From positions 124,001 through 188,000 of the forward strand of contig WHVA01000135.1 in NCBI GenBank assembly GCA_015179125.1: a stretch of DNA of 64,000 nt. Reading direction: 5' to 3'. Each line of letters begins with the position of its first letter. Within the stretch, counting starts at the first letter, position 1. This DNA comes from Gautieria morchelliformis. Lineage: Eukaryota; Basidiomycota; Agaricomycetes; Gomphales; Gomphaceae. Positions 4,684 to 21,564 of this stretch are shown piece after piece. Made by a program: the position numbers and the translations under genes. The notes beneath the pieces are model-generated. The model did not search any database and was not told the origin of the DNA. It saw only the letters and a program-made list of their open reading frames with translations.

Positions 4684-4764
4684 GTAGGCAGAGAATTTTT
4701 TGTGTAATGGGACAGAAGTATCTGACCTAGTTCATAAGCGTTCAAGACACTGGGCATATGTCTC

Positions 4765-5261
4765 TGTAGAGGACAGGAATTATAGGCAGTAGGAATGGAC
4801 TTCTTGCTCAAAAGAATAGACTAGAAAACAATTCACTCTCTCAGTGAATTTAGTTGTCACTGTAAATATATTATACACTATCTAGAAAACAATTCACTAC
4901 AGAGGATTTCTAGGTTAATAAATCGAAAGAATGCTAGACTAATTTACTTGCCTCTCTCAGTGAATTTAGTTGTCACTGAGAGAGGGGGAAACTGTTTCAC
5001 TGCGCATGTCCTACTACCCGGCCCTTTAGCGCCCAAGAGCTCGCGCGTCGAAGTCATTTCAGACTCCGCTGGGTGCAGCCGCTTGTGAAAGTAGGAATAA
5101 CAAGATGAAATGGAGAGATAGGGAGTGAGTGGAAAATTTCGAAAATAACCAGAGAAATGGATGCATGATACAAGAACAACATGAGAAGAAATTGAGAAAG
5201 CACACAACAAATTGGATATATTATGCTTGATTTTGGTGCAGGAGCATCAATGCACCCAACA
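4765..5261 (-). repeat. copia A 3' LTR (complete, 497 bp)
   Basis: In element orientation it starts TGTTGGGTGC (at 5261) directly after the polypurine tract and ends CCTGTCCTCTACA (at 4765). It contains a perfect 13-bp inverted repeat, CCTCTCTCAGTGA...TCACTGAGAGAGG (4951-4963 / 4973-4985), and a degenerate echo of it near 4836-4863. The base after the LTR (element sense) begins GAGAC, the expected TSD, but its partner is lost on the other side. Confidence 0.9.
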
Positions 5262-5273
5262 CGCCCCCTCAAG
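5262..5273 (-). promoter_or_regulatory. copia A polypurine tract
   Basis: Minus strand reads GCTTGAGGGGGCG immediately before the 3' LTR start TGTTGG. A G-rich tract abutting the 3' LTR is the plus-strand primer site of LTR elements. It overlaps the stop end of the gag-pol ORF by a few bases of spacing only. Confidence 0.75.
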
Positions 5274-5274
5274 C

Positions 5275-8200
5275 TTAATATATTCCGATTTGTTCATTGA
5301 GGATCTTCACTCTAGGACTAGGAAGTCCTTTGGTGAGGATATCTGCCAACATTTGTTCGGTTGGCAAATAAACGAGCTTGGCTTGTTGATTTTTGATTAT
5401 ATCTCGAAGGAAATATAATCTGATGTCGAAATGTTTGGTTCTCGTGTGTTGTTGAGTGCCATACGTGATGGCAATGGCTGATTGATTGTCTGAATAAATT
5501 TTGATGGGTCTGTTCAGTGGTTGGAATATTTCAGAAATAAAATGGCGCATCCAAAGAGCCTCTTTGCCCGCATGGGTCAGGGCGACGAATTCGGCTTCAG
5601 TTGATGAGAGGGCTACTATCGACTGTTTCTGGCAACTCCATGAAACAGTGCCTCCATCAATCTGAAATAAGTATGCCGAATACGAACGCCTATGACTCTG
5701 TGAACCCCAATCCGCATCTGAATACCCCATCAAGCCGTCTCGATTTCTTCCAAGTGTGAGCTTGTAATTCTTCGTGCCTTTTAAATATTTGAAGACACGT
5801 TTGACTGCATTCCAATGTGTGCCACCTGGATTTTCGAGGAATTGCGAAAGCAATGACACCGCAAATGCAATGTCAGGTCGAGTGGCTACAGCTGCCCACA
5901 TCAGTGATCCTATGGCTTGCCTGTATGGAAACTTCGACATGGCTTTCTTGCCTCTCTCTGTAGAAGGACACTGGTCTTTTGATAATTTAACAGCTGGATC
6001 AAGGGGCGTAGCATAAGTCTTTGCATCTTCGAGATTGAATTTCTTGATGATCTTCTCGATGTATGCAGGTTGTGAAATTGCAATAGTTTTCTTCTGCCAG
6101 TCTCTTTCGATTTTGAGATTCAATAGCCAATGAATCTCGCCTAGATCTTTCATACTGAAGACCTGAGCAAGATCTCGTTTGACTTCGTCCAGGACTGACT
6201 GATTCTCAGCTGTGATGGTGAGATCATCCACAGCTGTTGCAATGATCACATGCCCCTTTCCGCCACGTCTATAAAATACAGCCCCATCTGTGGCTGACGT
6301 AGTGAATCCTAATTTGTGGAATTCACCACTTAGACGTTTGTACCATTCCCTTCCAGATTGTTTGAGGCCATAGAGTGCTTTCTTCAAAAGTAGCACTTCG
6401 TCTTTGTCTCTAGACTCATATCCATACGGCTGCTTCATGTAAATAGGTTCAGGTAGTGTAGCATTGAGGTATGCATAGTCCACGTCCATTTGATGGATAG
6501 GCCAGTCATTCCTACCAGCAATGGCGCATATGATCCGTAGGGAGGATAACCGAGCAACAGGTGAGTATGTCTCATCATAGTCGACTCCAAACTTCTGTGT
6601 GAAGCCTTGGGCGACCATTCTCGATTTAGGCATTATTGGTTTCCCTTCTGGATTACGCTTCCAAAGGTAGACCCATTTATTACCGACAATATTGGCTCCA
6701 GGAGGTGGTTTGGCTCGTTCCCACACTCCCTTGTCGATTAGGGCCTCATACTCTTTGTCCATTGATTTCTTCCATATAGGATTATTCAGAGCTTCGTCTG
6801 CATTGCTAGGTTCAATTTGACTCAAATACGGCGCCTTGTTATTGTTTTGACCGTCGGTTAGAAACGCACTGATGGCACACTCATAGCTACTGATGCCATC
6901 AATCTCGGAGGATAATTCTTGGTCGAATAAAACTTCTTTATGGCCCTCAACGTCCTCGTAAGCTAGCGTAGTCATATGTGTGCCAGCTTGTCTCTGGGTT
7001 TGAGATCTTGTTACGGGACCTGATGGGGCCGGCTGCACTTGTTGTTGACGGATCCTTTCGCTTCTCCTTATCGGTTCAGCTTTTCTAGGTCTGTCATCAA
7101 CTCCCTGAATAGGTTGCAGCTTTTCAAGATATTCCTCTGGTGCATTTTCATCAATTTCTTCGATCTTTGCCTCTTCGCTGACTAAGCGACCGGGCACAGG
7201 CACTGATGCCGGAATGGCCTTCTTCTCCTCTCTAGACGTAGGTAGCTTGGATTCCTCAATAGAAATGATTGGGACCTTTCCCTTCTTCATCTCTGAATCA
7301 AACACAACATTCCGCTCGACAGAAACTTTGTGCGAATCAGGCCAATAAATATAATGACCATGGCTCTGCGCAGAAATTCCTATCCACCGAGCTCTCTTGG
7401 CACGAGCTTCCAATTTATCTCCCTGAGTGACCTTAACATAGACTTCAATTCCCCACACGTGAATGTCTTTGAGATTGGGTTTCTCATGGTGGATCATCTC
7501 GTAGGGCGTTTTATCCGGTAGAGCTCTTGTGTGCGTCCTATTCCTAAGATAATTGGCATGCTGTATTGCATAGCCCCATAATATCTTAGGAAGGCCTGAT
7601 TCTAACAGCATGGCACGAGTTCTCTCAGTGAGAGTTCGGTTCAGATGTTCGGCAACACCATTAGACTCTGGTGTGTCGTGTACCGTCAACTGATGCTTCG
7701 TGCCTCGTTTGGCTAGATGCTGTTCGAATTCAGAGCTCGTATACTCGCCCCCTCGATCAGAAACAAGTGCCTTGATGTGCACATTTCTCTGTCGAAGCAT
7801 TAAAGCCTCATAGAGCTTGTACTTTGAGAATGCTTCTGATTTGTTCGCCATGAGATAGATCACCAATTCTCTTGAGTAATCATCGATAAAGGAGACATAA
7901 TATGACTTCTTATCGATTGTGAGGTGCCTTGCAGGTCCCCAGACATCAGAATAAATTCTGTCACCGAATTTTGACGTTCGGTCTCTGGGTTCTCGAGGAA
8001 GAGGTTTGCGTGCAATCTTGGCCTGAATACACGCATCGCAGACAATTCTATCGCCTGTGGAGCTCAGTTCAATGCCCAATATCATGCCATGATTTAATAG
8101 ATGTTGTAGGGACTTCTGTGAGATATGCCCCATTTTTTGATGAATTTCCATGGCAGACAAACACATATGGGCTTGAGCACTTGGTGACTGGAGGTCTAGT

Positions 8201-9519
8201 CGATATAAACCATTGACCTTCGGTGCTTGCATCAATACCTTTCCAGTAGCATTAGATATTGTGCATTTCTGGCCACCGAGTCGAATGTCGTAGCCAGCAT
8301 CATCGCACCGACCGATCGAGACGAGGGTAGCAGCAATTTTTGGAGCATAATATGTATCTTGCAACGTGACTTCTACTGTTTTATCTCCAACCTTGTTGGA
8401 TAATACAAGCAGTCCTGAACCGAAGGCATCAAAAGTGCCTTTGTTGGCTGCTCGGATAGTCCTCGGCTGTGAGAATTGACAGTAGTTCCTCAATAAATTT
8501 TTGTGAGGAGTCATATGCGATGTCGTTCCGGTGTCGAGTATAACTATAACTCCTGAGGATGTGCTCAGATTGAAATTAGAGCACTCGTCAAAATTGGTGA
8601 AGGCAAGATGCCCATCACCACTTTCCTCAGAAGAGGACTCTTCTTCGGCAACATTCGCTTTTGCTTTACCCTTCTTCTTCTTCTTGGCTTTAGCTTTTTT
8701 CTTCTGACGTGGTCCTTGACCTTCTTTACCACCTCCTTTAGCCCAGCAATTTTCGATAGAATGTCCAGGCTTTTTGCAGTTGGTGCATATATGCGCCTTC
8801 TGCCCCTTCTGGTCCTTCTTAGTAGATGAACCAATAAACACCTGCTCTTCTTGCGGGAGTGTTTTCTTCCTGTCATACTGAGCCTTTAGTACCCTAATAA
8901 TATTATCAGGGACCAATGGCATCCCGCATTCTTCAAGCGAAGTGGTAAGGGCATTCATGACTGCCTCATAGGATGGTGGAAGTGACGCAAGGATGATGTC
9001 CATAAATTCTTCTTCGGAAACTCTAGCTCCCATCTCATTAAGACGAGCATATAGGTCTTGGGCCTTGTCCAAATGATCTCTCAAGTCTCCATCCTCAGGA
9101 CATCTCATACTGCGGAGTTGTCTCTGCAGGCTGGTGAGGACCATCTTGGGCTTTTTGGTCATCTCATTGACCAGTGCATCCCAAGTCTCTTTTGCTGTCT
9201 TCTGCTTCTGTAGCATCAGGGCTAATGACTCTGACACTGAGACGATGATTTGGGTCTTGGCTTGTCCTTCTCTAGCAAGGTATCTTTCCAGCTTCTCCTC
9301 AGCCTTATCCATCTGAGTTTCCTCAGCTTCTGTAAGAATATGGCCTGGGGGCATAACTGGAGGATCAGGAGGTCGAGTGACTCTCCCTTCTACATGCTTG
9401 AGTAGATTTTTGGACTCGAAATAGCTGATGAGAGTGGCTCGCCACAATGGCCAATTACTTCCATCAGTAGCAAGCTTCTCAACACGCAATAGCTTCTCAG
9501 AAGTGTCTCCGGGGCCCAT
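5275..9519 (-). CDS. copia A gag-pol polyprotein (1414 aa, intact)
   Basis: A single open frame carries the full Ty1/copia order. Gag at about residues 1-240; CCHC knuckle C-T-N-C...H...C at 245-258 followed by a Lys-rich run; aspartic protease D-T-G at about 329; GAG-pre-integrase and integrase with H-x-H/C-x-x-C and D-D-E residues (S-D-V-W-G-P, S-D-R-G-G-E-Y, and Glu in N-G-V-A-E-H); reverse transcriptase with A-V-D-D-L in place of the usual Y-V-D-D; RNase H with S-D-A-D-W, S-S-T-E-A-E and S-D-N-Q. No stop or frameshift. Gag and pol lie in one frame, as is normal for copia. The start ATG is inside the primer-binding site, giving an N-terminus M-G-P shared with copia B. Confidence 0.95.
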   Translation of the reverse strand: MGPGDTSEKLLRVEKLATDGSNWPLWRATLISYFESKNLLKHVEGRVTRPPDPPVMPPGHILTEAEETQMDKAEEKLERYLAREGQAKTQIIVSVSESLALMLQKQKTAKETWDALVNEMTKKPKMVLTSLQRQLRSMRCPEDGDLRDHLDKAQDLYARLNEMGARVSEEEFMDIILASLPPSYEAVMNALTTSLEECGMPLVPDNIIRVLKAQYDRKKTLPQEEQVFIGSSTKKDQKGQKAHICTNCKKPGHSIENCWAKGGGKEGQGPRQKKKAKAKKKKKGKAKANVAEEESSSEESGDGHLAFTNFDECSNFNLSTSSGVIVILDTGTTSHMTPHKNLLRNYCQFSQPRTIRAANKGTFDAFGSGLLVLSNKVGDKTVEVTLQDTYYAPKIAATLVSIGRCDDAGYDIRLGGQKCTISNATGKVLMQAPKVNGLYRLDLQSPSAQAHMCLSAMEIHQKMGHISQKSLQHLLNHGMILGIELSSTGDRIVCDACIQAKIARKPLPREPRDRTSKFGDRIYSDVWGPARHLTIDKKSYYVSFIDDYSRELVIYLMANKSEAFSKYKLYEALMLRQRNVHIKALVSDRGGEYTSSEFEQHLAKRGTKHQLTVHDTPESNGVAEHLNRTLTERTRAMLLESGLPKILWGYAIQHANYLRNRTHTRALPDKTPYEMIHHEKPNLKDIHVWGIEVYVKVTQGDKLEARAKRARWIGISAQSHGHYIYWPDSHKVSVERNVVFDSEMKKGKVPIISIEESKLPTSREEKKAIPASVPVPGRLVSEEAKIEEIDENAPEEYLEKLQPIQGVDDRPRKAEPIRRSERIRQQQVQPAPSGPVTRSQTQRQAGTHMTTLAYEDVEGHKEVLFDQELSSEIDGISSYECAISAFLTDGQNNNKAPYLSQIEPSNADEALNNPIWKKSMDKEYEALIDKGVWERAKPPPGANIVGNKWVYLWKRNPEGKPIMPKSRMVAQGFTQKFGVDYDETYSPVARLSSLRIICAIAGRNDWPIHQMDVDYAYLNATLPEPIYMKQPYGYESRDKDEVLLLKKALYGLKQSGREWYKRLSGEFHKLGFTTSATDGAVFYRRGGKGHVIIATAVDDLTITAENQSVLDEVKRDLAQVFSMKDLGEIHWLLNLKIERDWQKKTIAISQPAYIEKIIKKFNLEDAKTYATPLDPAVKLSKDQCPSTERGKKAMSKFPYRQAIGSLMWAAVATRPDIAFAVSLLSQFLENPGGTHWNAVKRVFKYLKGTKNYKLTLGRNRDGLMGYSDADWGSQSHRRSYSAYLFQIDGGTVSWSCQKQSIVALSSTEAEFVALTHAGKEALWMRHFISEIFQPLNRPIKIYSDNQSAIAITYGTQQHTRTKHFDIRLYFLRDIIKNQQAKLVYLPTEQMLADILTKGLPSPRVKILNEQIGIY

Positions 9520-9524
9520 AACCC
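9511..9524 (-). promoter_or_regulatory. copia A primer-binding site overlapping the gag start
   Basis: Minus strand GGGTTATGGGCCCC begins directly after the LTR end TCTACA. It is complementary to the anticodon arm of initiator tRNA-Met, the half-tRNA primer known for Drosophila copia. The ATG inside it (complement of the CAU anticodon) is the gag start codon. Confidence 0.75.
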
Positions 9525-9901
9525 TGTAGAGGACAGGAATTATAGGCAGTAGGAATGGACTTCTTGCTCAAAAGAATAGACTAGAAAACAATTCACTCTC
9601 TCAGTGAATTTAGTTGTCACTGTAAATATATTATACACTACCTAGAAAACAATTCACTACAGAGGATTTCTAGGTTAATAAATCGAAAGAATGCTAGACT
9701 AATTTACTTGCCTCTCTCAGTGAATTTAGTTGTCACTGAGAGAGGGGGAAACTGTTTCACTGCGCATGTACTACTACCCGGCCCTTTAGCGCCCAAGAGC
9801 TCGCGCGTCGAAGTCATTTCAGACTCCGCTGGGTGCAGCCGCTTGTGAAAGTAGGAATAACAAGATGAAATGGAGAGATAGGGAGTGAGTGGAAAATTTC
9901 G
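9525..9901 (-). repeat. copia A 5' LTR, missing its outer 120 bp
   Basis: Matches 4765-5141 of the 3' LTR nearly perfectly, then stops at GGAAAATTTCG and passes into copia B gag. In element orientation the U3 start is gone. The LTR frame happens to be open and extends the copia B gag ORF to 9814. Confidence 0.9.
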
Positions 9902-10986
9902 TTGTCCGCGGCAGTGACCGTCCGTGGCGTGATCTCGTCGAAGGTGATGAAGCGATGCCTACTCGGCGACATATGACCTGACGCGCCCGAGTCGTAAACA
10001 TCGACTTCTCGTCCCGTTGACCGACCCGTTCCCAGCACAAGCACGGTCCCAGCGAGTGTCGTGGTAAATGTGAAATACTCACCCTCTACCACTGCGTTCA
10101 CTGAGTCACCTCCTTTCTTATCCTCATCCTTCTTCTCCTTTTTCTTGCCTTTAGAACAACAATCCGCTTTGATATGCCCCTTTTTGCCGCACTTCCAACA
10201 TTCAACATATGTCCGTGTGGTGTTGGAACTACTGCTGTGTGGCTGGTGCTTTCCGCGATTCTTGACCACCGCGAGTGCGTTCTCACTCGCCTTCAATTGT
10301 CGTTCCTCAATTGCTAATCGCTCGAACTCGTCGGTTAGAGTGCTGACTACCTGGTCTGGCTCGAGTCTTGCCTTTGCATGTGTCGCCAACATCGTTATCA
10401 CATTGATGAGCGGCCGATACGACTTCGGGAGCGAGCCAAGGATGACGGTGACCAGGTCATCATTGGTGATTCCTGCGTTCATCCCTGGGAGTTGTTCCTG
10501 CATTCTCATGAGGGACTCCAGGTGCGTGTGGACGTTCGATTCGTCCTCACATTTCAGCTCGTACATGTGTCGTCGCATGTCAACTTTGACCGTGAGTGCC
10601 CTTGTCTCATGCTTTGCACATACGGCCTCCCAGACCTCCTTTGCCGTAGCTAGGTTGCGGACTTCGATAAGGATGCTATCAGGGACAGTGGTAAATATTT
10701 GTGCCATTATCGCTGCCTCGCGCTGATTGTAGTCGTCCCAGCGTTTCTCGAGTTCCTCTAGGTCCTCTTCCTCCTTGTCTGTGAGTGTATAGCCGTCAGG
10801 GTACGTCGGGATCGTGCGAGGGATCCGAGCGGTCCCTTTGAGGTGACGCTTCGCGCCACGGGTCGCCGCCAGCATAGCTAACATCTGGCTTTTCCAGGTG
10901 ACCCAGTTCGTGCTGTCCCTGGCCAGCTTCGGGATGACGAACGACTTGGAGGTGGGGGTAGACGTTGTGGGCTCTGCGGGGCCCAT
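9902..10986 (-). pseudogene. copia B gag and protease start (truncated)
   Basis: About 360 codons from the PBS-embedded ATG (M-G-P-A-E-P). Gag domain (N-W-V-T-W-K-S-Q-M near residue 32), CCHC knuckle C-W-K-C-G-K-K-G-H-I-K-A-D-C followed by a Lys-rich run, then protease motif V-Y-D-S-G-A-S-G-H-M. Homology stops at T-A-A-D-N, where the copia A LTR begins; another 28 codons read into LTR sequence. The matching integrase, RT and RNase H are on the other side of the inversion. Confidence 0.9.
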
Positions 10987-10990
10987 AACC
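10978..10990 (-). promoter_or_regulatory. copia B primer-binding site with gag ATG
   Basis: GGTTATGGGCCCC on the minus strand abuts the LTR end CCGCTACA; the same site as in copia A, E and F. The gag ORF starts at its ATG. Confidence 0.75.
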
Positions 10991-11248
10991 TGTAGCGGTT
11001 ATGCGCAGTGCTAATAGGAATGAAGTCTACATAATAGTAAGTATACCATTAGGACACATAATGGGACGGGGGCACGTACCTCAGTGAACGGTCAGTTCAC
11101 TGAGGGGTTAGTGACTGTGGAGCGAGTAGATATAGGGCCTCGGTCAAACTTGACCGAGGCCAGTAATACTATTTTACTAGACAATGATAAATCCTTCCCC
11201 TAACCTACTTGGCCCTGCATTCGACGCTTACCGACCCTGACTTCAACA
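10991..11248 (-). repeat. copia B 5' LTR (258 bp)
   Basis: Starts TGTTGAAGTCAGGG, ends AACCGCTACA (element sense). Matches the 3' LTR at 17613-17817, which lacks about 50 bp near the end. Holds two strong palindromes, GGCCTCGGTCAA/TTGACCGAGGCC and CCTCAGTGAAC/GTTCACTGAGG. Confidence 0.9.
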
Positions 11249-11278
11249 GACAGTGCTATTGGCAAACCTGCAACATAG
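11249..11278 (+). pseudogene. Displaced 3' end of the host gene at 17818-18050
   Basis: Directly outside the copia B 5' LTR the plus strand reads the 5-bp target copy GACAG, then completes codons A-I-G-K-P-A-T and a TAG stop (11276-11278). Joined to the minus-strand frame that ends F-H-D-S at 17818, it closes that ORF without a frame break. This supports the inversion model and gives the C-terminus of the interrupted gene. Confidence 0.6.
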
Positions 11279-13284
11279 TGATACAATACCAAATGAGACA
11301 TCGTCATCTGCATCGTTGCCACAGACTCCGAGACGAAGCAACTCCCCATATTGAGAAGGAATCATGTCCACATGGACCCACCCATGCCACATGGACCATC
11401 AGCGATTACATAAGGCCTGAGTGTCAGCGCAGCATCCCTGAACTGCTTCAAGTAAATAGTCATCCAATATGTTGCATGTCAATGTCTCTGACGCGGAAGC
11501 TCCATAAACGTTCTTTGTCATCATCACTATCCCTCACAGACCACAGGTCAAGGCACACATTCACTTCAGTGTACCGACCCTTACCTAATTCACCGGTGCC
11601 TACTCACGTAATACAGCACAGCGTGCTGCCGGGAGCCGAGAATAGAAATAGGGTGGCATTCGAAGATCGAAGCCGGCGATACGTCGATCGACGTCTGGCT
11701 TGCAAGGTGCTTCTGCTTCATAAGCTGATGCGTGCCTTGTGGCGTAGCGAGGTGCCTTGCATCAACGCATCTCGATCACCAATCACGATCATGATATAAA
11801 CTGCCATGTCAGGGAGTTGATCAAGCAGGGAAGCGCTCTTCTTGGTAAACCAGCGTGGGGAAGCAGTAACGTGTTGGACACGTGCCAGGAGGTGCCACAG
11901 GACAGGGGCGCTTCCCAGCTAAAATCTTCAGCCAAGACGCACCTCCACCCATCCCACATCGCGCAGTCCCCGAGCCAACAACAATGCTCGCGGTCTCCCA
12001 TCCACTGGGCATCTTCTCGCATATCATCACATACAACGAACGGGGACACAAAGACCTGCACTGCCATGCACAAACCCACACCCAGAACCAAAGCTGATGC
12101 TCCAAAGCAGACTGAACGAAGACAAACACCAAGCAGCATCAACGCAACGCTGCAGGCCGCCCAAAAATGTGTCCCACGTGACGTGCCCCCACGAACACCG
12201 CGCACGTGCACAAGCCACGGTTAGCGCCCTGGTCACTGTAGAAAACTCCGACATTAGATTTCGGTACCTTTTACACAAACGGCAATAATCAGTACCTTTG
12301 AGCACTGACAAATCAGTGCTCAGAAATATCATTAAATGAGCACCAAAAATAAGTGCTTTGGAGCACTGATTTTCAGATACTGAAAAACATGCAAGTATGT
12401 GAAAAAAAAAAAAAAAAAGAAACATGATCGCCCTCTTCACTGTGTATGTTAGACCATTAGGCGTACAGAGCAATTTCCTCTTGTCGTCGAACTGAGTCCG
12501 CCAACTAATTAGCGCTGCTGCCACTATAGCATGAAATATTGCTCACCAAGTCCTGGAGACATCGTAGCGACCAATGCAGTACCTTGTACGCGCGTCCAAA
12601 TTTTTCCCCAAGTGATTTGAATCTCCGACCCGCTCTAATTCTAACTCCTCTCTTCCCCCCATGACCACAGCCAACAGAAAACAAACTATAACGCTTGCCC
12701 TCATCAATTTTTCGATGGTGCCCAGTTATGATGGAGCGAACCAGGAGGAAAATGCAGAGTATGTGAACATCGTGATGTTATCATGTGATCCCCGCTCAAC
12801 ACCCGCATCAAAAAGCTCTTCTTACAAATGATATCGTGGGGTTGGGTAAAAACGTGGTGGTTTAGAGGGTGCCTCCTGGTAAGATACTCTTTCATTGAAA
12901 ATACCATGCATATACTCAATATATATTATTGCTACGTGCCTCTCTGCTGCTCTCGCTCATGCACTCTGGGTCTTGCTCTCGCACTATCTCCCCTCGCCTG
13001 CTCATTCTCACAATAGACCGCTCCCGCCCTCGCTCTTGCAATGTGTCCTCGCTCTTACAATAGACCACTTCTGCTCCCACTCATGTGAAGGTTGCGAAAG
13101 GTGAGTGTGGGGGTTGGGCTGTCGCAAGTATTGGGAGCCATGTTACATGCCTTATATGCCTACCTTCCTCATCGCTCACATACTCACATTCCGATCCTTC
13201 CAGCATACGCAGCCCAGGTGCGCCCATGAACATCTCTACTATTCCTTAACTCAACCTGACCACTGTATTTCTTTTTTTGGACAG
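11279..13284. other. Non-coding stretch with a small perfect hairpin and an A-tract
   Basis: No gene supported; several long ORFs on both strands overlap one another and look like chance. 12300-12321 is a perfect hairpin (GAGCACTGA, 4-nt loop, TCAGTGCTC) with related half-copies up to 12380, followed by a run of 17-18 A at 12403-12420, which could be the end of a small retroposed element. 12940-13100 is rich in CTCGCTCT-type words. Upstream exons of the DnaJ gene may lie in 13100-13280 but could not be placed. Confidence 0.4.
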
Positions 13285-13700
13285 AAACACGGCCTTTATG
13301 AGCGACATGGGGAGGTACGTGTTGCAATTCACCCTTGTCATTGTTCTTTGAGCTTTACTTTACTTTGTCACTTATCGTTTTATACTTGCCCGGACGTGAG
13401 CTGACAAATATTACCCTTCCCTCTCATCCAGAAAGGCCTGAGACAGCACGAAGGCGGCCAGCATGCCAATCCCTTCGATAGTTTTTCGTCCTTCTTCGGT
13501 GGCAGTGGACATGAGTCGTTTCATCGTTAATTTATCGTTCTGCACGCTCAAAATGATACTTTGCCGTATAATACTCCTCATACACATGTGCCATATCATT
13601 CATGACATTTATGATCCTGTGACACTGCAGCTCAGCAACAGGAGGTCCGCCGCAGGCCCATGATGACAAGTGTCTTTGAAGTGAGCCTTGAGAACATCAG
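13285..13700 (+). pseudogene. ER-type DnaJ co-chaperone fragment (Scj1/DNAJB11-like)
   Basis: Three exons share one frame: 13285-13314 (K-H-G-L-Y-E-R-H-G-E, the end of a J domain), 13432-13525 (G-L-R-Q-H-E-G-G, then N-P-F-D-S-F-S-S-F-F-G-G) and 13631-13700 (Q-Q-Q-E-V-R-R-R-P, then F-E-V-S-L-E-N-I). Introns run GTACGT...CATCCAG and GTTAAT...CTGCAG. G/F-rich linker followed by an R-R-x-P-x-M-x-x-x-F-E-V-S-L-E segment is typical of class I ER DnaJ proteins, which assist BiP in the lumen. The HPD-bearing part of the J domain is not visible upstream, and the zinc-finger and client-binding regions are lost at the copia B junction near 13701. Confidence 0.8.
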
Positions 13701-14328
13701 TCTACTGCAGCGGCAGCGAGTACTACATGGAAAGTACTCACATTGGACAAGTTACACTGCCGGATGGGACACATATCCCCCCAGGCCGCTCGCAAGCTCA
13801 TCCGGGACCAAGTCATCACTAGACTGGATCTCAACATGGCGAGTCAGCCAGGCTTTTGCACGGAGTGTGCACAAGCCAAACCTACCCGAAAATCCGTCCC
13901 ACAGAAACGGGAGGGGCCGCGAGCCTCCAAATTCGGCGAAAAGGTGCACTCGGACGTCTGGGGGCCCGCAAACCCCCAGAGCTATGACCGAAAAGACTAT
14001 TTCGTCAGTTTCACCGACGACTATAACCGGTGGACTTACCTGGTACCGATGGCTAGGAAGAGCGACACGTTCAACTGCTACAAGCAGTATGAGGCGTGGG
14101 TCGAGACGCAGTATAACGCGAAAATAAAACACTTACAGACTGACCGCGGGGGAGAATACCTCTCCGACGCATTCACGGCCCACCTGAAGTCAAAAGGGAC
14201 GACCTGGAGCCTCACGGTGCACGATACCCCTGAAGAAAACAGCGTATCAGAACGTTTGAACCGGACATTGCTAGAACACGCACACGCGATGCTTCTAGCA
14301 GCTGGAGTAACGAAGTTCCTGTGGACGG
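13701..14328 (+). pseudogene. copia B integrase, N-terminal part
   Basis: GAG-pre-integrase and integrase: L-H-C-R-M-G-H-I-S, C-T-E-C-A-Q-A-K, first catalytic Asp in H-S-D-V-W-G-P, second in T-D-R-G-G-E-Y, Glu in P-E-E-N-S-V-S-E-R-L-N-R-T. The frame is open until the solo LTR at 14329 and resumes at 15587 with M-E-A-V-Q-N. The catalytic region is complete although split from the C-terminal domain. Confidence 0.85.
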
Positions 14329-15585
14329 TGTCATGACGCGTTTATTTCTCATACTCAGGTGCTCTGTCCTGCCATTTCTCACCCCATTTCCGTGTTTGTT
14401 CCGATCGCCATTGTCCTGTTCGGCAACCGATTCTCGCTGTTCGCGCCAATTACCAAAGCTACGCCGTCAAACGCACGATCGACGTCTTTGGACTGACTTA
14501 GCAGTCATCGCTGGGTCTACCACCTCCTCTGCTCGACCCTCTTCCAATGGTGTTCTGGTAAATTGGATTGTCATGACCTGTGTATTTCCTGCACCTTGTT
14601 ATCCCCATTTCCCCTTTTGCTACTCCTCCCCAGTGTTCGCTGGCTTCGACCTCCACCTTGACCTGTCCTCCTCTATGTCACCTCTGTTCACCCTTCCTCA
14701 CATTTCGCCGAGCGATCATTCGCCAACAGGCACACCATCAAATCACAATCGACATCCCTCTGCGGCATGATGGCTCGTCAGTAACTCCATCAGCTTTTCG
14801 ATCCAACCCCCTTTTGGTGTTCATATGAGCAGGGTGCATTCGCGGGACGTCCTACCTGTAGGTCGTGTGGGATCAACCCAGTATATGAAGAACCCGTGCA
14901 GGGCGGTGTATATGCGGGCCCCAAGACATGATTTCGTATACAGGTGTCTTTGCCACCTTCACTCTCCGTGGTTTCATCTTCTCCCTCTTCTCTCATTCTA
15001 TTGTATGTTTATTCCATCTATGTTGTATCATGACTGCACACCCCTATCCAACCCTGATTCGTGATGGCCTCTTTCCTATTCGCTGATACCTTACGAGCAT
15101 TCGATATAAGTAGTTTACATTCGCATGCATATTCCCCAGTTCAATTATCATACGTCGTTCATCTTGTGCAGCTTTGGCCTCGCTGTGGTCATCGTCTTAA
15201 GCCTCCTCTTGGAGATTTCCATCTTCGACCAGCAGAGGACTTAGGCATCACTGGTGAGTTCTCATACTTCGTCTTTGTTACCTTAGCCTTCGAACCATTT
15301 TCTGTGCTGTTGGCGAAGGGCTCCGAAGGAGCACCTTCGCCAGCAAAGGGATTGTCTCTACTTAGACAGCCCTTCCGTGACACCTTGCACGTTGCATCGT
15401 CAAGAGCCACAGGCCATTTCGCTACGACTGTAGATAGGGTGAGCCCCGTTCGGGCAACCCTCTTACCTTGTGAACATTCATTGGTTCACCTATTCGCCGA
15501 ACGGCATACTTATTCGCACAAGTTATTCGGGCATTCGCTGTGTTCACTAATACACGATATTAACGCCTGAAAACCAATCTTGACC
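14329..15585 (+). repeat. Solo LTR, family G, copy 1 (1257 bp)
   Basis: Begins TGTCATGACGCG and ends CAATCTTGACC (terminal A changed), flanked by a 5-bp duplication GACGG/GATGG. Removing it and one TSD restores the integrase frame W-M-E-A-V. A conserved stem-loop GGCGAAGGGCTCC/GGAGCACCTTCGCC lies at 15312-15341. TG...CA ends with 5-bp TSD and no coding content mark a solo LTR; the size suggests a Ty3/gypsy-type parent, not seen in this window. Confidence 0.9.
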
Positions 15586-17605
15586 GATGGAAGCGGTACA
15601 GAATGCTGTCTGGCTGAAAAACCGGACTTCGATGCGTGCGCTCAATGGCAGAACACCATATGAGGTTGTACACGGCGCGAAGCCGGACCTCACCGATTTA
15701 CCAGAGTGGGGAACTAGAGTCTTTGTTCTGAAAGAAAGCAGCAGCAAGATAGACTCGAAGGCGGATGAAGGAAAGTGGGTGGGGTATAGCGATGAGAGCA
15801 AAGGGCACAGGGTCTACTGGCCCAGGAAACGCCGTGTCACGGTGGAAAGGAATGTCACATTTGACGCCCTTGTCCTTGTGACCCCCAACGACGGTCTGAC
15901 TGAGGGGGAGTCATCCACCCTAGGCACTCAGAACGCCGTCGGCGGCGCTCCCGCTTCTCACACACTCCACCAGCACCCGCCACTACAACCCCCAGACCCG
16001 GTAGCAGACCCTGCAGACACCGGGCAGATCGACCCCCTCAAAGGATTCGAGGCCGCAGATCTCCCAGCAGACCCGCCCCAAGGAAGGGGCCACCGCACAT
16101 GGAAACTGTCCGCGTACGTGCGGGGGATCGCGGACGGCGTGGGCAGCAGCACAGGTCGCCCACACGTGCCCGCGTATCCCCGAGGTCTGCTGATGCCCAC
16201 CAACGACTCAGCCCTAGTCACGCTGACAGGGGGCGCAGGAGATATTGCCAGAGCTGAGGGGGGGCCTCGTCACCCTGCCAGGCACACGACGGCTGCCGCA
16301 GTGCACAGCCCAGGGCCTGACCCGACTAACCTCGACAATGCCTGTTCCCACGCTGACTGGCCGCAGTGGGACGCGTCTATCAGACGGGAGTTGGACCAAC
16401 ATGCGGCACTGTGCACCTGGGACCTCGTCGAAGCCCCAGATGGTGCGAACATCGTAGGGAGCAGGCTCGTGTTTCACTACAAGCACGACGCGGAGGGAAA
16501 GGTTGTAGATCGAAAAACCAGGCTCGCCATGCAAGGATTCTCACAGGCACAGGGAATTGACTACAACGAGACCTGCTCTCCCACAGCAAAGCTCTCTGCT
16601 ATCCCAATAATCGCAGCTATCGCAGTCCAGAACAACTGGGAACTCGAACAAATGGATATAGATGGCGCGTACTTGAATGCACCGATCACGGAGACTATAT
16701 ACATGCGACAGGCCAGGGCATATGAAGCCCCTGGAAATGAGCATAAGGTCTGCCGGCTCAACCGTGCGATATATGGGTTGAAGCAATCCGGTAGAGAATG
16801 GTACGATACGCTGCATGGGTTCATGAACCAATTTGGCTTCACGCGCTGCGAGACGGAACATGCAGTCTTTCACAGATATGCTGGATGGGACGCGCTTATT
16901 GTTGCGGTCGACGTTGACGATCTGACCATGGCCGGTAGCTCGAAGAACGCGATCCTTGAGTTCAAGAACGAGCTACGTATGGTCCTCAAAATCAAGGACT
17001 TGGGCGATCTGCATTGGTTATTGGGTATAGAGGTGAAACGGGTGCGCGAGACGCACACAATATCCTTCTCACAATGTGCTTACATCGAGAGAATTCTCGA
17101 GAGGTTCAGCTTGCAGTATGGGAACGCCCTGAGCATGCTGCTCGACCCGCATCATGACGCTGACTGGGCATCACAAGAACACCAACACTCAATCTCAGGG
17201 TATGTGCTCACAATCGATGGAGGCGCTGTGTCTTGAAGTTCCAAGAAGCAGCCGATCGTCGCATTGTCAACAATGGAGGCGGAATACGTCGCAGCGACTC
17301 ATGCCGCAAAGGAGGCTTTGTGGATACGTGCCTTCCTGGAAGAGATCGCCTGACCACTTAGCCAGCCCATCACAATCCACCTCGACAACCTCTCTGCGAT
17401 ATCTATCACAAAGAATGATGAGTATCAGCCGAGGACCAAGCATATCGACATACGATATCACTTCATACGTCATGCAGTACAGAGACAGTTACTGTACATC
17501 GACTATGTACCGACAGATGACATGGCCGCCGACTTATTCACTAAAGCCCTCCCCCGACACAAGGTTCTACACCTGAACGCCCTACTTGGTCTACGTTCGG
17601 CTTAA
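15586..17605 (+). pseudogene. copia B integrase C-terminus, RT and RNase H (decayed)
   Basis: One frame from 15587 holds the integrase C-terminal region, a Pro-rich linker, RT (I-Y-G-L-K-Q-S-G-R-E-W; V-D-V-D-D-L-T-M as catalytic box) and a junction L-L-D-P-H-H / D-A-D-W-A-S-Q-E where roughly 80 residues between RT and RNase H are deleted. RNase H continues past TGA at 17234-17236 (expected Trp) and TGA at 17351-17353 (expected Arg) to a normal end G-L-R-S-A at 17605. Confidence 0.9.
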
Positions 17606-17612
17606 GGGGGAG
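17604..17612 (+). promoter_or_regulatory. copia B polypurine tract
   Basis: AAGGGGGAG directly before the 3' LTR start TGTTGAAG; it overlaps the pol stop codon TAA. Confidence 0.75.
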
Positions 17613-17817
17613 TGTTGAAGTCAGGGTCGGTAAGCGTCGAACGCAGGGCCAAGTAGGTTAGGGGAAGGGTTTATCATTGTCTAGTAAAATAGTATTACTG
17701 GCCTCGGTCAAGTTTGACCGAGGCCCTATATCTACTCGCTCCACAGTCGCTAACCCCTCAGTGAACTGACCGTTCACTGAGACTTCATTCCTATTAGCAC
17801 TGCGCATAACCGCTACA
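17613..17817 (+). repeat. copia B 3' LTR (205 bp, internally deleted)
   Basis: TGTTGAAGTC...CCGCTACA, matching 10991-11248 apart from a roughly 50-bp deletion before GACTTCATTCC. Followed by the target duplication CTGTC. Confidence 0.9.
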
Positions 17818-18050
17818 CTGTCATGGAAGCATCCCTCTGTTTCAGATCCAAATGTGAAGCGCCCGTTCGATGTGGTTCTGTAGTACTCGCCGTCTGCGTA
17901 AGTACAGCTGGTCCGTGTCTCAGAGGCAACAGTGCATATCATGTTGTGGCTTGGAGTGAGTGAGCTCCATGCACGCCTGGGCATGTGGACCTGTTGTCGC
18001 ACACAACATGTGCAGCTTGTCCCCATTCCCACACCTCTCGAGGACTGCAA
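17818..18050 (-). pseudogene. Host gene 3' exon interrupted by copia B; unknown family
   Basis: Minus-strand frame ending S-C-T-Y-A-D-G-E-Y-Y-R-T-T-S-N-G-R-F-T-F-G...G-C-F-H-D-S at the copia B target site. It is preceded by a plausible acceptor TATTGCAG near 18055. The Cys spacing and the G-E-Y-Y-R/F-T-F-G pattern resemble small secreted fungal proteins, but I do not recognise a family. The last seven residues and stop lie at 11249-11278 on the other side of the inversion. Upstream exons and signal peptide were not found. Confidence 0.45.
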
Positions 18051-19189
18051 TAGATGAAGTGCATATGTAGTGGCGATGATGAAATTTGCGCACTAGGGTA
18101 TGTACGAGCATTCACAATTAATTAAAGGAATTCAGAACGTACTTGCGATGTCACGAAGAGCCAGAATTTAAATACAGATATGCCCCCACAAATGGAAATT
18201 CCACAGTCTGTATACGACACATGATGCTTCGACGCAGAATGGATGTCTCAAGTAATATACATCTCGGTCAGCTAGTTTCACATGCACATATCGAGGTCCT
18301 TGGGGCAAGTGCAATGGACCCCATCACTTGTACACTTGTATACACATGGCAAAAAAAACATCCACGAAACTCTGGCACGAGGCGGCACGCGCGAAAACAC
18401 CAACACAGAAAGTGATTCAAATGCCCCAAAGGATAGTGATGTCATCCAGGGAAGAGATGGACGGGGCCATGCAGCAAGAACCGCAAATAACGCATAGCGC
18501 TCCAGGCGGAGGCGTAGAAAGGGTAGAATATGGGGAATCGTGTAACATTATACATCCCACACCTGACTATACGAGAAACTACGAACATAGAGGCAACAGC
18601 CTGGCCGTGACCAAGAAGGTTGGCAAGTGACAAAATGAAAACGAGGTGAACGCCAAACTCGAAAAAGTACCATCCTTCGTTGAAGATCGAAAGCAGGACT
18701 CACAAAAAGGGAACGCTCCTATCAAAAACATCTTGCAATCCCTGAGGAATGTAGCCCAACCAATGCAGCGTCCTTGATGCTCGACCGATGAAATCATTGA
18801 ACAAGATGGGTGGCATGTGAAATAGTTGCGGAACGTGGTTAGTTGTTTTCATTGAGTACGCTCGGACTTACTTGGCCGTAATAACCCAACGCCACGGCCT
18901 CACAGGCATTCCCTCAAGTGTGCGTATGACACTACCACAAAGAAATAATACAACTGAGGCACGGCTCAACCACAGAAGAAGTGATGTGGGCACCTGCATC
19001 AGCCACTTTTGAACTCGCACAGTTAGAACCTCAGTTAGAACCTCATGTAGCTTGCCTGCCTTATCTGATTTTCGCACTTTGAGAGCAACAGCTGCTGTGT
19101 ATGATGATTAAGCGTGTATTCGATCGATGAGCAAAAAGGACTGACCTGCGATTGCTCCATCTGCAAGCAGCCTTCCTTCGCACCACCTA
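18051..19189. other. Stretch without a recognised gene
   Basis: Several short ORFs on both strands with no recognisable motifs. Could contain upstream exons of the minus-strand gene at 17818-18050. Confidence 0.4.
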
Positions 19190-20290: not shown

Positions 20291-21564
20291 TGTCATGACA
20301 CGTTTATTTCTCATACTCAGGTGCTCTGTCCTGCCATTTCTCACCCCATTTCCGTGTTTGTTCCGATCGCCATTGTCCTGTTCTGCAGCCGATTCTCGCT
20401 GTTCATGCCAATTACCATAGCTACGCCGTCAAACGCACGATCGACGCCTTTGGACTGACTTAGCAGTCATCGCTGGGTCTACCACCTCCTCTGCTCGACC
20501 CTCTTCCAATGGTGTTCTGGTAAATTGGATTGTCATGACCTGTGTATTTCCTGCACCTTGTTATCCCCAGTTCCCCTTTCGCTACTCCTCCCCAGTGTTC
20601 GCTCGGCTTCGCCCTCCACCTCGACCTGTCCTCCTCTATGTCACCTCTGTTCACCCTTCCTCGCGTTTCGCCGAACGATCATTCGCTGCTCGCATCATTC
20701 GCCAACAGGCACACCATCAAATCACAATCGACATCCCTCTGCAGCATGATGGCTCGTCAGTAACTCCATCAGCTTTTCGATCCAACCCCCTTTTGGTGTT
20801 CATATGAGCAGGGTGCGTTCGCGGGACGTCCTACCTGTAGGTCGTGTGGGATCAACCCAGTATATGAAGAACCCGTGCAGGGCGGTGTATATGTGGGCCC
20901 CAAGACATGATTTCGTATACAGGTGTCTTCTCCACCTTCACTCTCCATCGTTTCATCTTCTCCCTCTTCTCTCATTCTATTGTATGACTGTTCCATCTAT
21001 GTTGTATCATGACTGTGCACCCCTATCCAACCCTGACTCGTGACGGCCTCTTTCCTATTCGCTGATACCTTATGAGCATTCGATATAAGTAGTTTACATT
21101 CGCATGTATATTCCCCAGTTCAATTATCATACGTCGTTCATCTTGTGCAGCTTTGGCCTCGCTGTGGTCATCGTCTTAAGCCTTCTCTTGGAGATTCACA
21201 TCTTTGACTAGCAGAGGACTTAGGCATCACTGGTGAGTTCTCGTACTTCATCTTCGTTACCTTAGCCTTCGAACCATTTTCTGTGCTGTTGGCGAAGGGC
21301 TCCGAAGGAGCACCTTCGCCAGCAAAGGGATTGTCTCTACTTAGACAGCCCTTCCGTGACACCTTGCACGTTGCATCGTCAAGTGCCACAGGCCATTTCG
21401 CTACGACTGTAGATAGGGTGAGCCCCGTTCGGGCAACCCTCTTACCTTGTGAACATTCATTGGTTCACCTATTCGCCGAACGGCATACTTATTCGCACAA
21501 GTTATTCGGGCATTCGCTGTGTTCACTAATACACGATATTAATGCCTGAAAACCAATCTTGACA
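20291..21564 (+). repeat. Solo LTR, family G, copy 2 (1274 bp)
   Basis: TGTCATGACACG...CAATCTTGACA with exact 5-bp TSD GTAAG (20286-20290 and 21565-21569). Same conserved stem-loop at 21291-21320. It is the best reference copy: perfect TGTCA/TGACA ends and exact TSD. Confidence 0.95.

What the first reader, a model, noticed from the sequence alone, without database searches (positions are those of the whole stretch)
9902..18050. One copia insertion split into opposed halves by an inversion, readable from its TSD and from a host ORF
The 5' half of copia B (LTR, gag, protease start) is on the minus strand at 9902-11248, and its 3' half on the plus strand at about 13701-17817. In element sense CTGTC precedes the 5' LTR and CTGTC follows the 3' LTR: one TSD on two distant ends. 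Independently, the minus-strand ORF ending F-H-D-S at 17818 is completed by the sequence outside the other LTR (A-I-G-K-P-A-T-stop at 11255-11278). Inverting about 9902-13700 restores one element in one host gene. The inverted block also carries the DnaJ exons.
Basis: partly seen in the sequence, partly recalled or inferred. Interest (0 to 1): 0.8.

Follow-up and report, generated by a model that had tools for sequence, protein, structure and literature searches.

The report
Jumping gene split by an inversion
A copia-type jumping gene in a mushroom-like fungus was cut in two when a 3.8-kilobase piece of chromosome flipped over; related places elsewhere in the same genome show that the two outer edges used to touch, so the reading is sound but the event is ordinary genome wear and tear.

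Summary
The core of the finding holds. Copia B's 5' part (9902-11248, minus) and 3' part (13693-17817, plus) are one insertion. CTGTC flanks both outer ends; its two LTRs are each other's best match among 29 compared and share a base seen in 0 of 28 other LTRs. Decisively, the joined outer flanks match C970 and C60 (near-identical places) contiguously across the join, and C781 has them head-to-tail around a different insertion. So the block 9902-13692 is flipped.

Corrections. The 3' half starts at 13693, not 13701. Re-inversion does not restore the element: 245 bp are missing. The left junction lies inside the LTR of a young copia A (120 bp lost), the right one inside a 2.2-kb DNA transposon carrying DnaJ-like exons (about 0.7 kb lost). 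The junctions overlap by 0 and 2 bp, as in end joining. The 'host gene' is not supported: the flank is repeat DNA, the ORF runs from 17852 into an unrelated repeat, and it has no Pfam match.

An assembly error is unlikely but untested: no reads and no sister genome were available. Ordinary transposon archaeology of a documented kind.

The parts
4765..9901 (-). copia A, young; 3' LTR 4765-5261 (497 bp) complete, 5' LTR 9525-9901 cut at 9901 (outer 120 bp missing); left target-site candidate GTCTC 4760-4764
   Evidence: LTRs differ at 2 of 377 positions; 14 listed places, this one included, are identical over 9560-9901 (40 of 2439 candidates scored); 4 of 4 copies viewed continue past 9901 as LTR
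9902..11248 (-). copia B 5' part: LTR 10991-11248, gag, zinc knuckle, start of pol
   Evidence: Pfam Retrotran_gag_2 8.8e-27
9901..9902 (.). junction 1: copia A LTR interior joined to copia B interior, 0 bp overlap; its 28-mer occurs once in the genome (up to 2 mismatches)
11249..12233 (-). original left flank of copia B, ending CTGTC in element sense; repeat-like, paralogues at C970, C60 and C781 (71-83%)
12234..13692 (+). 5' 1.46 kb of a ~2.17-kb DNA transposon (CACTGTAG...CTGCAGTG, 4-bp TSDs in most copies viewed) carrying DnaJ-like exons; 3' ~0.71 kb missing here
   Evidence: DnaJ-like exons of copy L010 match DNAJA1 (8e2o) at E 4.4e-4
13691..13693 (.). junction 2: DnaJ transposon interior joined to copia B interior, 2-bp overlap (AG); its 28-mer occurs once in the genome (up to 2 mismatches)
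13693..17817 (+). copia B 3' part: integrase, reverse transcriptase, end of RNase H, LTR 17613-17817; nested 1.26-kb insertion about 14327-15590; 270-bp deletion at 17154/17155
   Evidence: Pfam rve 4.7e-10, RVT_2 9.9e-65; RNase H is read by eye and was not tested
17818..17851 (+). original right flank of copia B, beginning CTGTC; contiguous with the left flank in C970 and C60

Best explanation
A copia element (B) inserted once, with a 5-bp TSD CTGTC, into a dispersed repeat. A DnaJ-carrying DNA transposon inserted nearby in the left flank. Later, two double-strand breaks, one inside copia B and one inside or beyond that transposon, freed a piece now measuring 3.8 kb, which was rejoined in the opposite direction by end joining. 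That left copia B in opposed halves. Sequence was lost (120 bp of copia A's LTR, unknown flank, ~0.71 kb of the DnaJ transposon, 245 bp of B), either in the same event or by one later deletion across the left join. Shown: single insertion, flipped orientation, the junction sequences and the losses. Inferred: that the flip happened in place next to copia A, the double-strand breaks, and the order of loss.
For: Flanks contiguous in paralogues: the joined flanks match C970 and C60 over query 1-109, across the join at 80/81, 83%. The 29 bases right of the join match at 25 of 29, reached by 1 of 127,942 window 29-mers on both strands, namely the true one (next best 19). C781 has both flanks on one strand with CTGTC on each side of a different insert. 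Same 5-bp TSD; 4 of 4 other copies with both ends in hand have 5-bp TSDs. LTR pair: 3 substitutions in 205 aligned bases, each the other's best match among 29 compared, and a shared A at position 6 absent from 28 of 28 other LTRs. The halves do not overlap and leave a 245-bp gap by comparison with 6 of 6 copies. Junctions show 0 and 2 bp overlap and no shared repeat.
Against: The LTRs differ in length (258 and 205 bp) through two different internal deletions between short repeats, so they are not identical; C570 has the same mix (206 and 317 bp) with a matching TSD. LTR identity is modest evidence: the next best matches are close (97.3% and 97.6% against 98.5%), and in the multiple alignment, where the 3' LTR was misaligned over its deletion, the two did not rank together. 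The best-matching copies of the two halves differ. The flank that should lie right of copia A, as seen in C478 and C471, is nowhere in the window, so in-place inversion is not directly shown. Both junctions join repeats, and no reads were available.
Confidence: 0.88

Rival explanations
1. The arrangement is an assembly error: the contig was joined wrongly among repeats, and the real chromosome carries copia B in one piece.
For: Both junctions join repeat to repeat; copia A has many identical copies; 1113 contigs.
Against: Both joins lie at unrelated interior points rather than at repeat ends or between shared sequences; an assembler's false flip is expected between inverted repeats, and the inverted repeats here (11080-11248 and 17613-17781) are not the breakpoints. 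245 bp of B are missing, which a mere flip would not cause. No N in the window. Each junction 28-mer is present once, and the lists, each of 40 scored candidates, show no near-identical second copy of the locus.
Confidence: 0.06
2. Two independent copia B insertions, each truncated, lie by chance in opposite directions.
For: The LTRs differ in length, and the nearest relatives of the two halves are different copies.
Against: Same 5-bp flank, private shared base and reciprocal best match of the LTRs, complementary non-overlapping halves and, above all, outer flanks that are neighbours in paralogues.
Confidence: 0.01
3. The flipped block was copied rather than turned over: a replication or repair template switch wrote an inverted copy of the left side and the original was lost.
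For: Short overlaps at the joins (0 and 2 bp) and large losses fit template switching as well as end joining.
Against: No second copy of the left flank close to identity appeared (40 of 294 candidates scored) or (8 of 8 scored); it needs an extra loss.
Confidence: 0.1

Closest known systems
Inversions read through transposon target-site duplications (Galileo inversion 2z3 of Drosophila buzzatii, PMC2775673; start of abstract and passages seen)
   Same: TSDs and elements in opposite orientation are used to deduce the ancestral order and the mechanism
   Different: There two Galileo copies recombined, with exchanged TSDs, no loss and chimeric elements; here one element was cut internally, its own TSD was separated, and there is no homology at the joins
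Ty1/copia LTR retrotransposons of fungi (Pseudoviridae; family name recalled)
   Same: gag with zinc knuckle, integrase before reverse transcriptase, LTR TG...CA, 5-bp TSD
   Different: This copy is broken and not complete
Gene-carrying non-autonomous DNA transposons (Pack-TYPE, PMC8903248; search listing and start of abstract only)
   Same: Host exons and introns amplified inside a terminal-repeat element
   Different: Fungal, mostly 4-bp TSDs; superfamily not settled here (CACTA/Chapaev-like is recalled, not tested)

Membership tests
Ty1/copia LTR retrotransposon (copia B) | integrase upstream of reverse transcriptase, copia-type RT | tested here: met
   rve in 13692-14333, RVT_2 in 15584-17233
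Ty1/copia LTR retrotransposon (copia B) | 5-bp TSD and TG...CA LTR ends | tested here: met
Single insertion split by inversion | outer flanks contiguous in an empty paralogue or orthologue | tested here: met
   C970 and C60 contiguous, C781 head-to-tail; no orthologue was available
Single insertion split by inversion | two halves complementary in element coordinates | tested here: met
   no overlap, 245-bp gap by comparison with 6 of 6 copies
Single insertion split by inversion | other breakpoint's two sides were neighbours before the flip | tested here: inconclusive
   tail of the DnaJ transposon and right flank of copia A both absent from the window
TE-mediated ectopic recombination inversion | homologous repeats at both joins | tested here: not met
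   0 and 2 bp overlap
Host protein-coding gene at the insertion site | ORF conserved or with known domain across the site | tested here: not met
   ORF crosses into an unrelated repeat at 17852, no Pfam family at E up to 1. Against this: in the C970 paralogue the same short frame is also open to a stop over the 18 codons compared
CACTA/Chapaev-type DNA transposon (DnaJ carrier) | terminal CACTG...CAGTG and fixed TSD length | tested here: inconclusive
   5 of 8 copies show exact 4-bp TSDs, at 4 distinct sites (L011 TCGA, L013 TCCA, L014 TCTG, L015 and L016 ATAG with the same flank); L012 is one base off, L010 does not fit and the end of L018 was not in view (ends read by eye). No transposase tested

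The most novel reading that the evidence does not exclude
The host repeat holds an integration hot spot: two different LTR elements (copia B here, a small LTR-like element of about 1.6 kb at C781) each entered the same 5-bp site CTGTC of paralogous copies, perhaps because the near-palindrome TGACAcTGTCA is preferred by copia-type integrases in this fungus.
Probability: 0.15. Interest if true: 0.35.

Novelty: new member of a known kind. Interest (0 to 1): 0.25.

Why it matters
It shows that, without a sister genome, one retrotransposon's own TSD plus an empty paralogous site in the same genome can prove a small inversion and its orientation. It also warns that annotation could call two truncated elements and a DnaJ gene here where there is one element and transposon cargo. 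It does not open a new question on its own.

Tried and rejected
Nested-insertion reading (copia A inserted into copia B, with B continuing on the far side of A): rejected, since the missing B segment is found nowhere in the window. Breakpoint at a transposon end, as in aberrant transposition: rejected, since copies of the DnaJ transposon continue about 0.71 kb past 13692. Host-gene reading: rejected. Target preference from the C665 copy, whose left flank also ends CTGTC: dropped, since that copy lies beside a tandem repeat full of CTGTC and its 3' end was not in the piece fetched. Sister-strain comparison: not possible, no relatives held. A plasmid-collection search with 18092-18500 found nothing. 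The first DnaJ check, a 62-residue fragment of the window copy, found no Pfam family at 0.01 and no PDB match at 0.001. The 76-residue reading of copy L010 matched one PDB chain at E 4.4e-4 and no DnaJ family in Pfam, so 'DnaJ-like' rests on modest evidence. Three papers opened for precedents of a split element (PMC2773423, PMC10462019, PMC3026039; passages only) showed nothing on the point. Paper searches were few and do not show that no such case is in print.

Full report
What was checked. The window is G000:C155:124001-188000 of a 122-Mb genome in 1113 contigs with no relatives held. Copia B's two LTRs were read directly and measured: 10991-11248 on the minus strand and 17613-17817 on the plus strand. 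Outside each, in element sense, is CTGTC. Where both ends of another family copy were in hand (4 copies, 3 distinct sites), all 4 had matching 5-base flanks, so a 5-bp TSD is the rule and the match here has a chance of about 1 in 1024.

One insertion. On 205 aligned bases the two LTRs differ by 3 transitions. Aligned pairwise, each is the other's best match among 29 (98.5%, next best 97.3% and 97.6%), and both have an A at position 6 that none of 28 other distinct LTRs has. Those 28 come from the loci in hand: the window's own loci, overlapping loci, exact duplicates and LTRs with an end missing were left out, and the search behind most of them scored 40 of 104 candidates. In the multiple alignment the 3' LTR was misaligned over its deletion and the pair did not rank together; one search mends this. 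Their lengths differ, 258 and 205 against a common form near 317, because each lost a different stretch between short direct repeats. The same kind of difference is seen between the two LTRs of the C570 copy (206 and 317), whose TSDs match. LTR identity alone is therefore modest support.

The decisive test. I joined the left flank (reverse of 11249-11328) to 17823-17898 and searched the genome (8 candidates, 8 scored). C970:117337-117445 and C60:4236-4344 match bases 1-109 of the join at 83%, straight across the seam at 80/81; these two places are 99.8% alike over 3.1 kb, so they count as one. The alignment extends to 409 columns at 74%. To the right of the seam 25 of 29 bases agree; among 127,942 29-mers of the window on both strands only the true one reaches 25, and the next best is 19. 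A third place, C781, carries the left flank to its last base, CTGTC, then about 1.6 kb of a different small LTR-like element, then CTGTC and the right flank on the same strand. So the two sequences that now lie 6.6 kb apart in opposed orientation were neighbours, head to tail. The other search with the flank, 11249-13700, had not shown these places; there 40 of 294 candidates were scored. A 24-base right-flank pattern has 7 places within 3 mismatches; the three on C670, C637 and C814 were not looked at further.

The breakpoints. Homology to copia B ends at 9902 on one side and begins at 13691-13693 on the other. In 6 of 6 copies the two points are 245 bp apart, so that much is missing, and turning the block back would not restore the element. 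Left of 9902 is copia A's 5' LTR, cut at 9901: its other LTR (4765-5261) is 497 bp, this one 377 bp, with 2 differences. Four of 4 copies viewed carry on past 9901 as LTR. Right of the block, 12234-13692 belongs to a transposon of about 2.17 kb (CACTGTAG...CTGCAGTG) present in many copies. Of 8 copies viewed, 5 have exact 4-bp TSDs (4 distinct sites), one is off by a base, one does not fit, and one end was out of view. Its last 0.71 kb is not in the window (7 copies compared). The joins show no overlap (left) and AG (right). Each join occurs once in the genome within 2 mismatches.

Mechanism. No shared repeat lies at the joins, so recombination between repeats and transposase action at element ends do not fit; end joining of two breaks with a turned fragment does. 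All the missing sequence can be placed at the left join: a clean flip followed by one deletion across the new left join would remove the LTR end, the unknown flank, the transposon tail and the 245 bp of B. If so, the flip could be older than copia A; if flip and loss were one event, it is younger. The data do not decide. The sequence that should follow copia A's target site, judged from C478 and C471 (89% alike over 615 aligned columns), is absent from the window, so that the block turned in place beside copia A is the simplest reading and not shown.

The 'host gene' is not supported. The right flank resembles the paralogues only to 17851; from 17852 the window enters another repeat (copies at C970:102171 and C453), and in C970, C60 and C781 the flank goes on differently. 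In fairness, the C970 paralogue has the same short frame open to a stop at nearly the same place; over 18 codons that does not make a gene. The DnaJ-like exons are cargo of the transposon. In copy L010 none of three raw frames is open throughout, and a 76-residue hand-joined reading matches DNAJA1 at E 4.4e-4 but no DnaJ family in Pfam.

Further damage to copia B. A 1.26-kb repeat interrupts the integrase region near 14327-15590, and 270 bp are missing at 17154/17155 by comparison with 4 of 5 copies viewed (265 by comparison with the fifth).

Standing. A small inversion that splits a transposon and is read through its TSD is a known kind of event; the Galileo inversion of Drosophila buzzatii (PMC2775673; start of abstract and passages seen) is a close parallel in method, with a different mechanism. 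The value here is a clean single-genome proof and a corrected annotation.

Noticed in passing
C781:326441-328029 (L081, L086): A different small LTR-like element (LTRs about 108 bp, beginning TGTTAGAACGC) sits at the same 5-bp site CTGTC in a paralogue of the host repeat; the site is a near-palindrome. Possible integration hot spot.
   Followed up: partly
12234-13692; copies L010-L018: A multi-copy DNA transposon carries DnaJ-like exons with introns; listed relatives fall at 93-97%, 85-90% and 73-80% identity, which suggests repeated bursts (40 of 294 candidates scored). The reading looks decayed.
   Followed up: partly
4765-9901: Copia A has a single 1430-aa open frame (5275-9567), LTRs differing at 2 of 377 positions, and 14 listed places, its own included, identical over 342 bases of LTR, so it was active recently.
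   Followed up: no
14340-15580 and 20302-21559: The 1.26-kb repeat nested in copia B occurs again 6 kb downstream at 96% identity and in 35 other near-full-length places listed at 87-93% (40 of 3966 candidates scored); not classified.
   Followed up: no
C341 and C349 (L003, L004, L049, L052): Two copia B copies on different contigs share the same flanks caggccatac / catactacca, which points to a segmental duplication or a second haplotype in the assembly.
   Followed up: no
L005, L070, L072 and others: Copia B LTRs lose blocks between short direct repeats (25-bp CTCAGTGAACTGACCGTTCACTGAG and 16-bp ACTTCATTCCTATTAG), giving 317, 258 and 205-bp forms, even within one element.
   Followed up: partly
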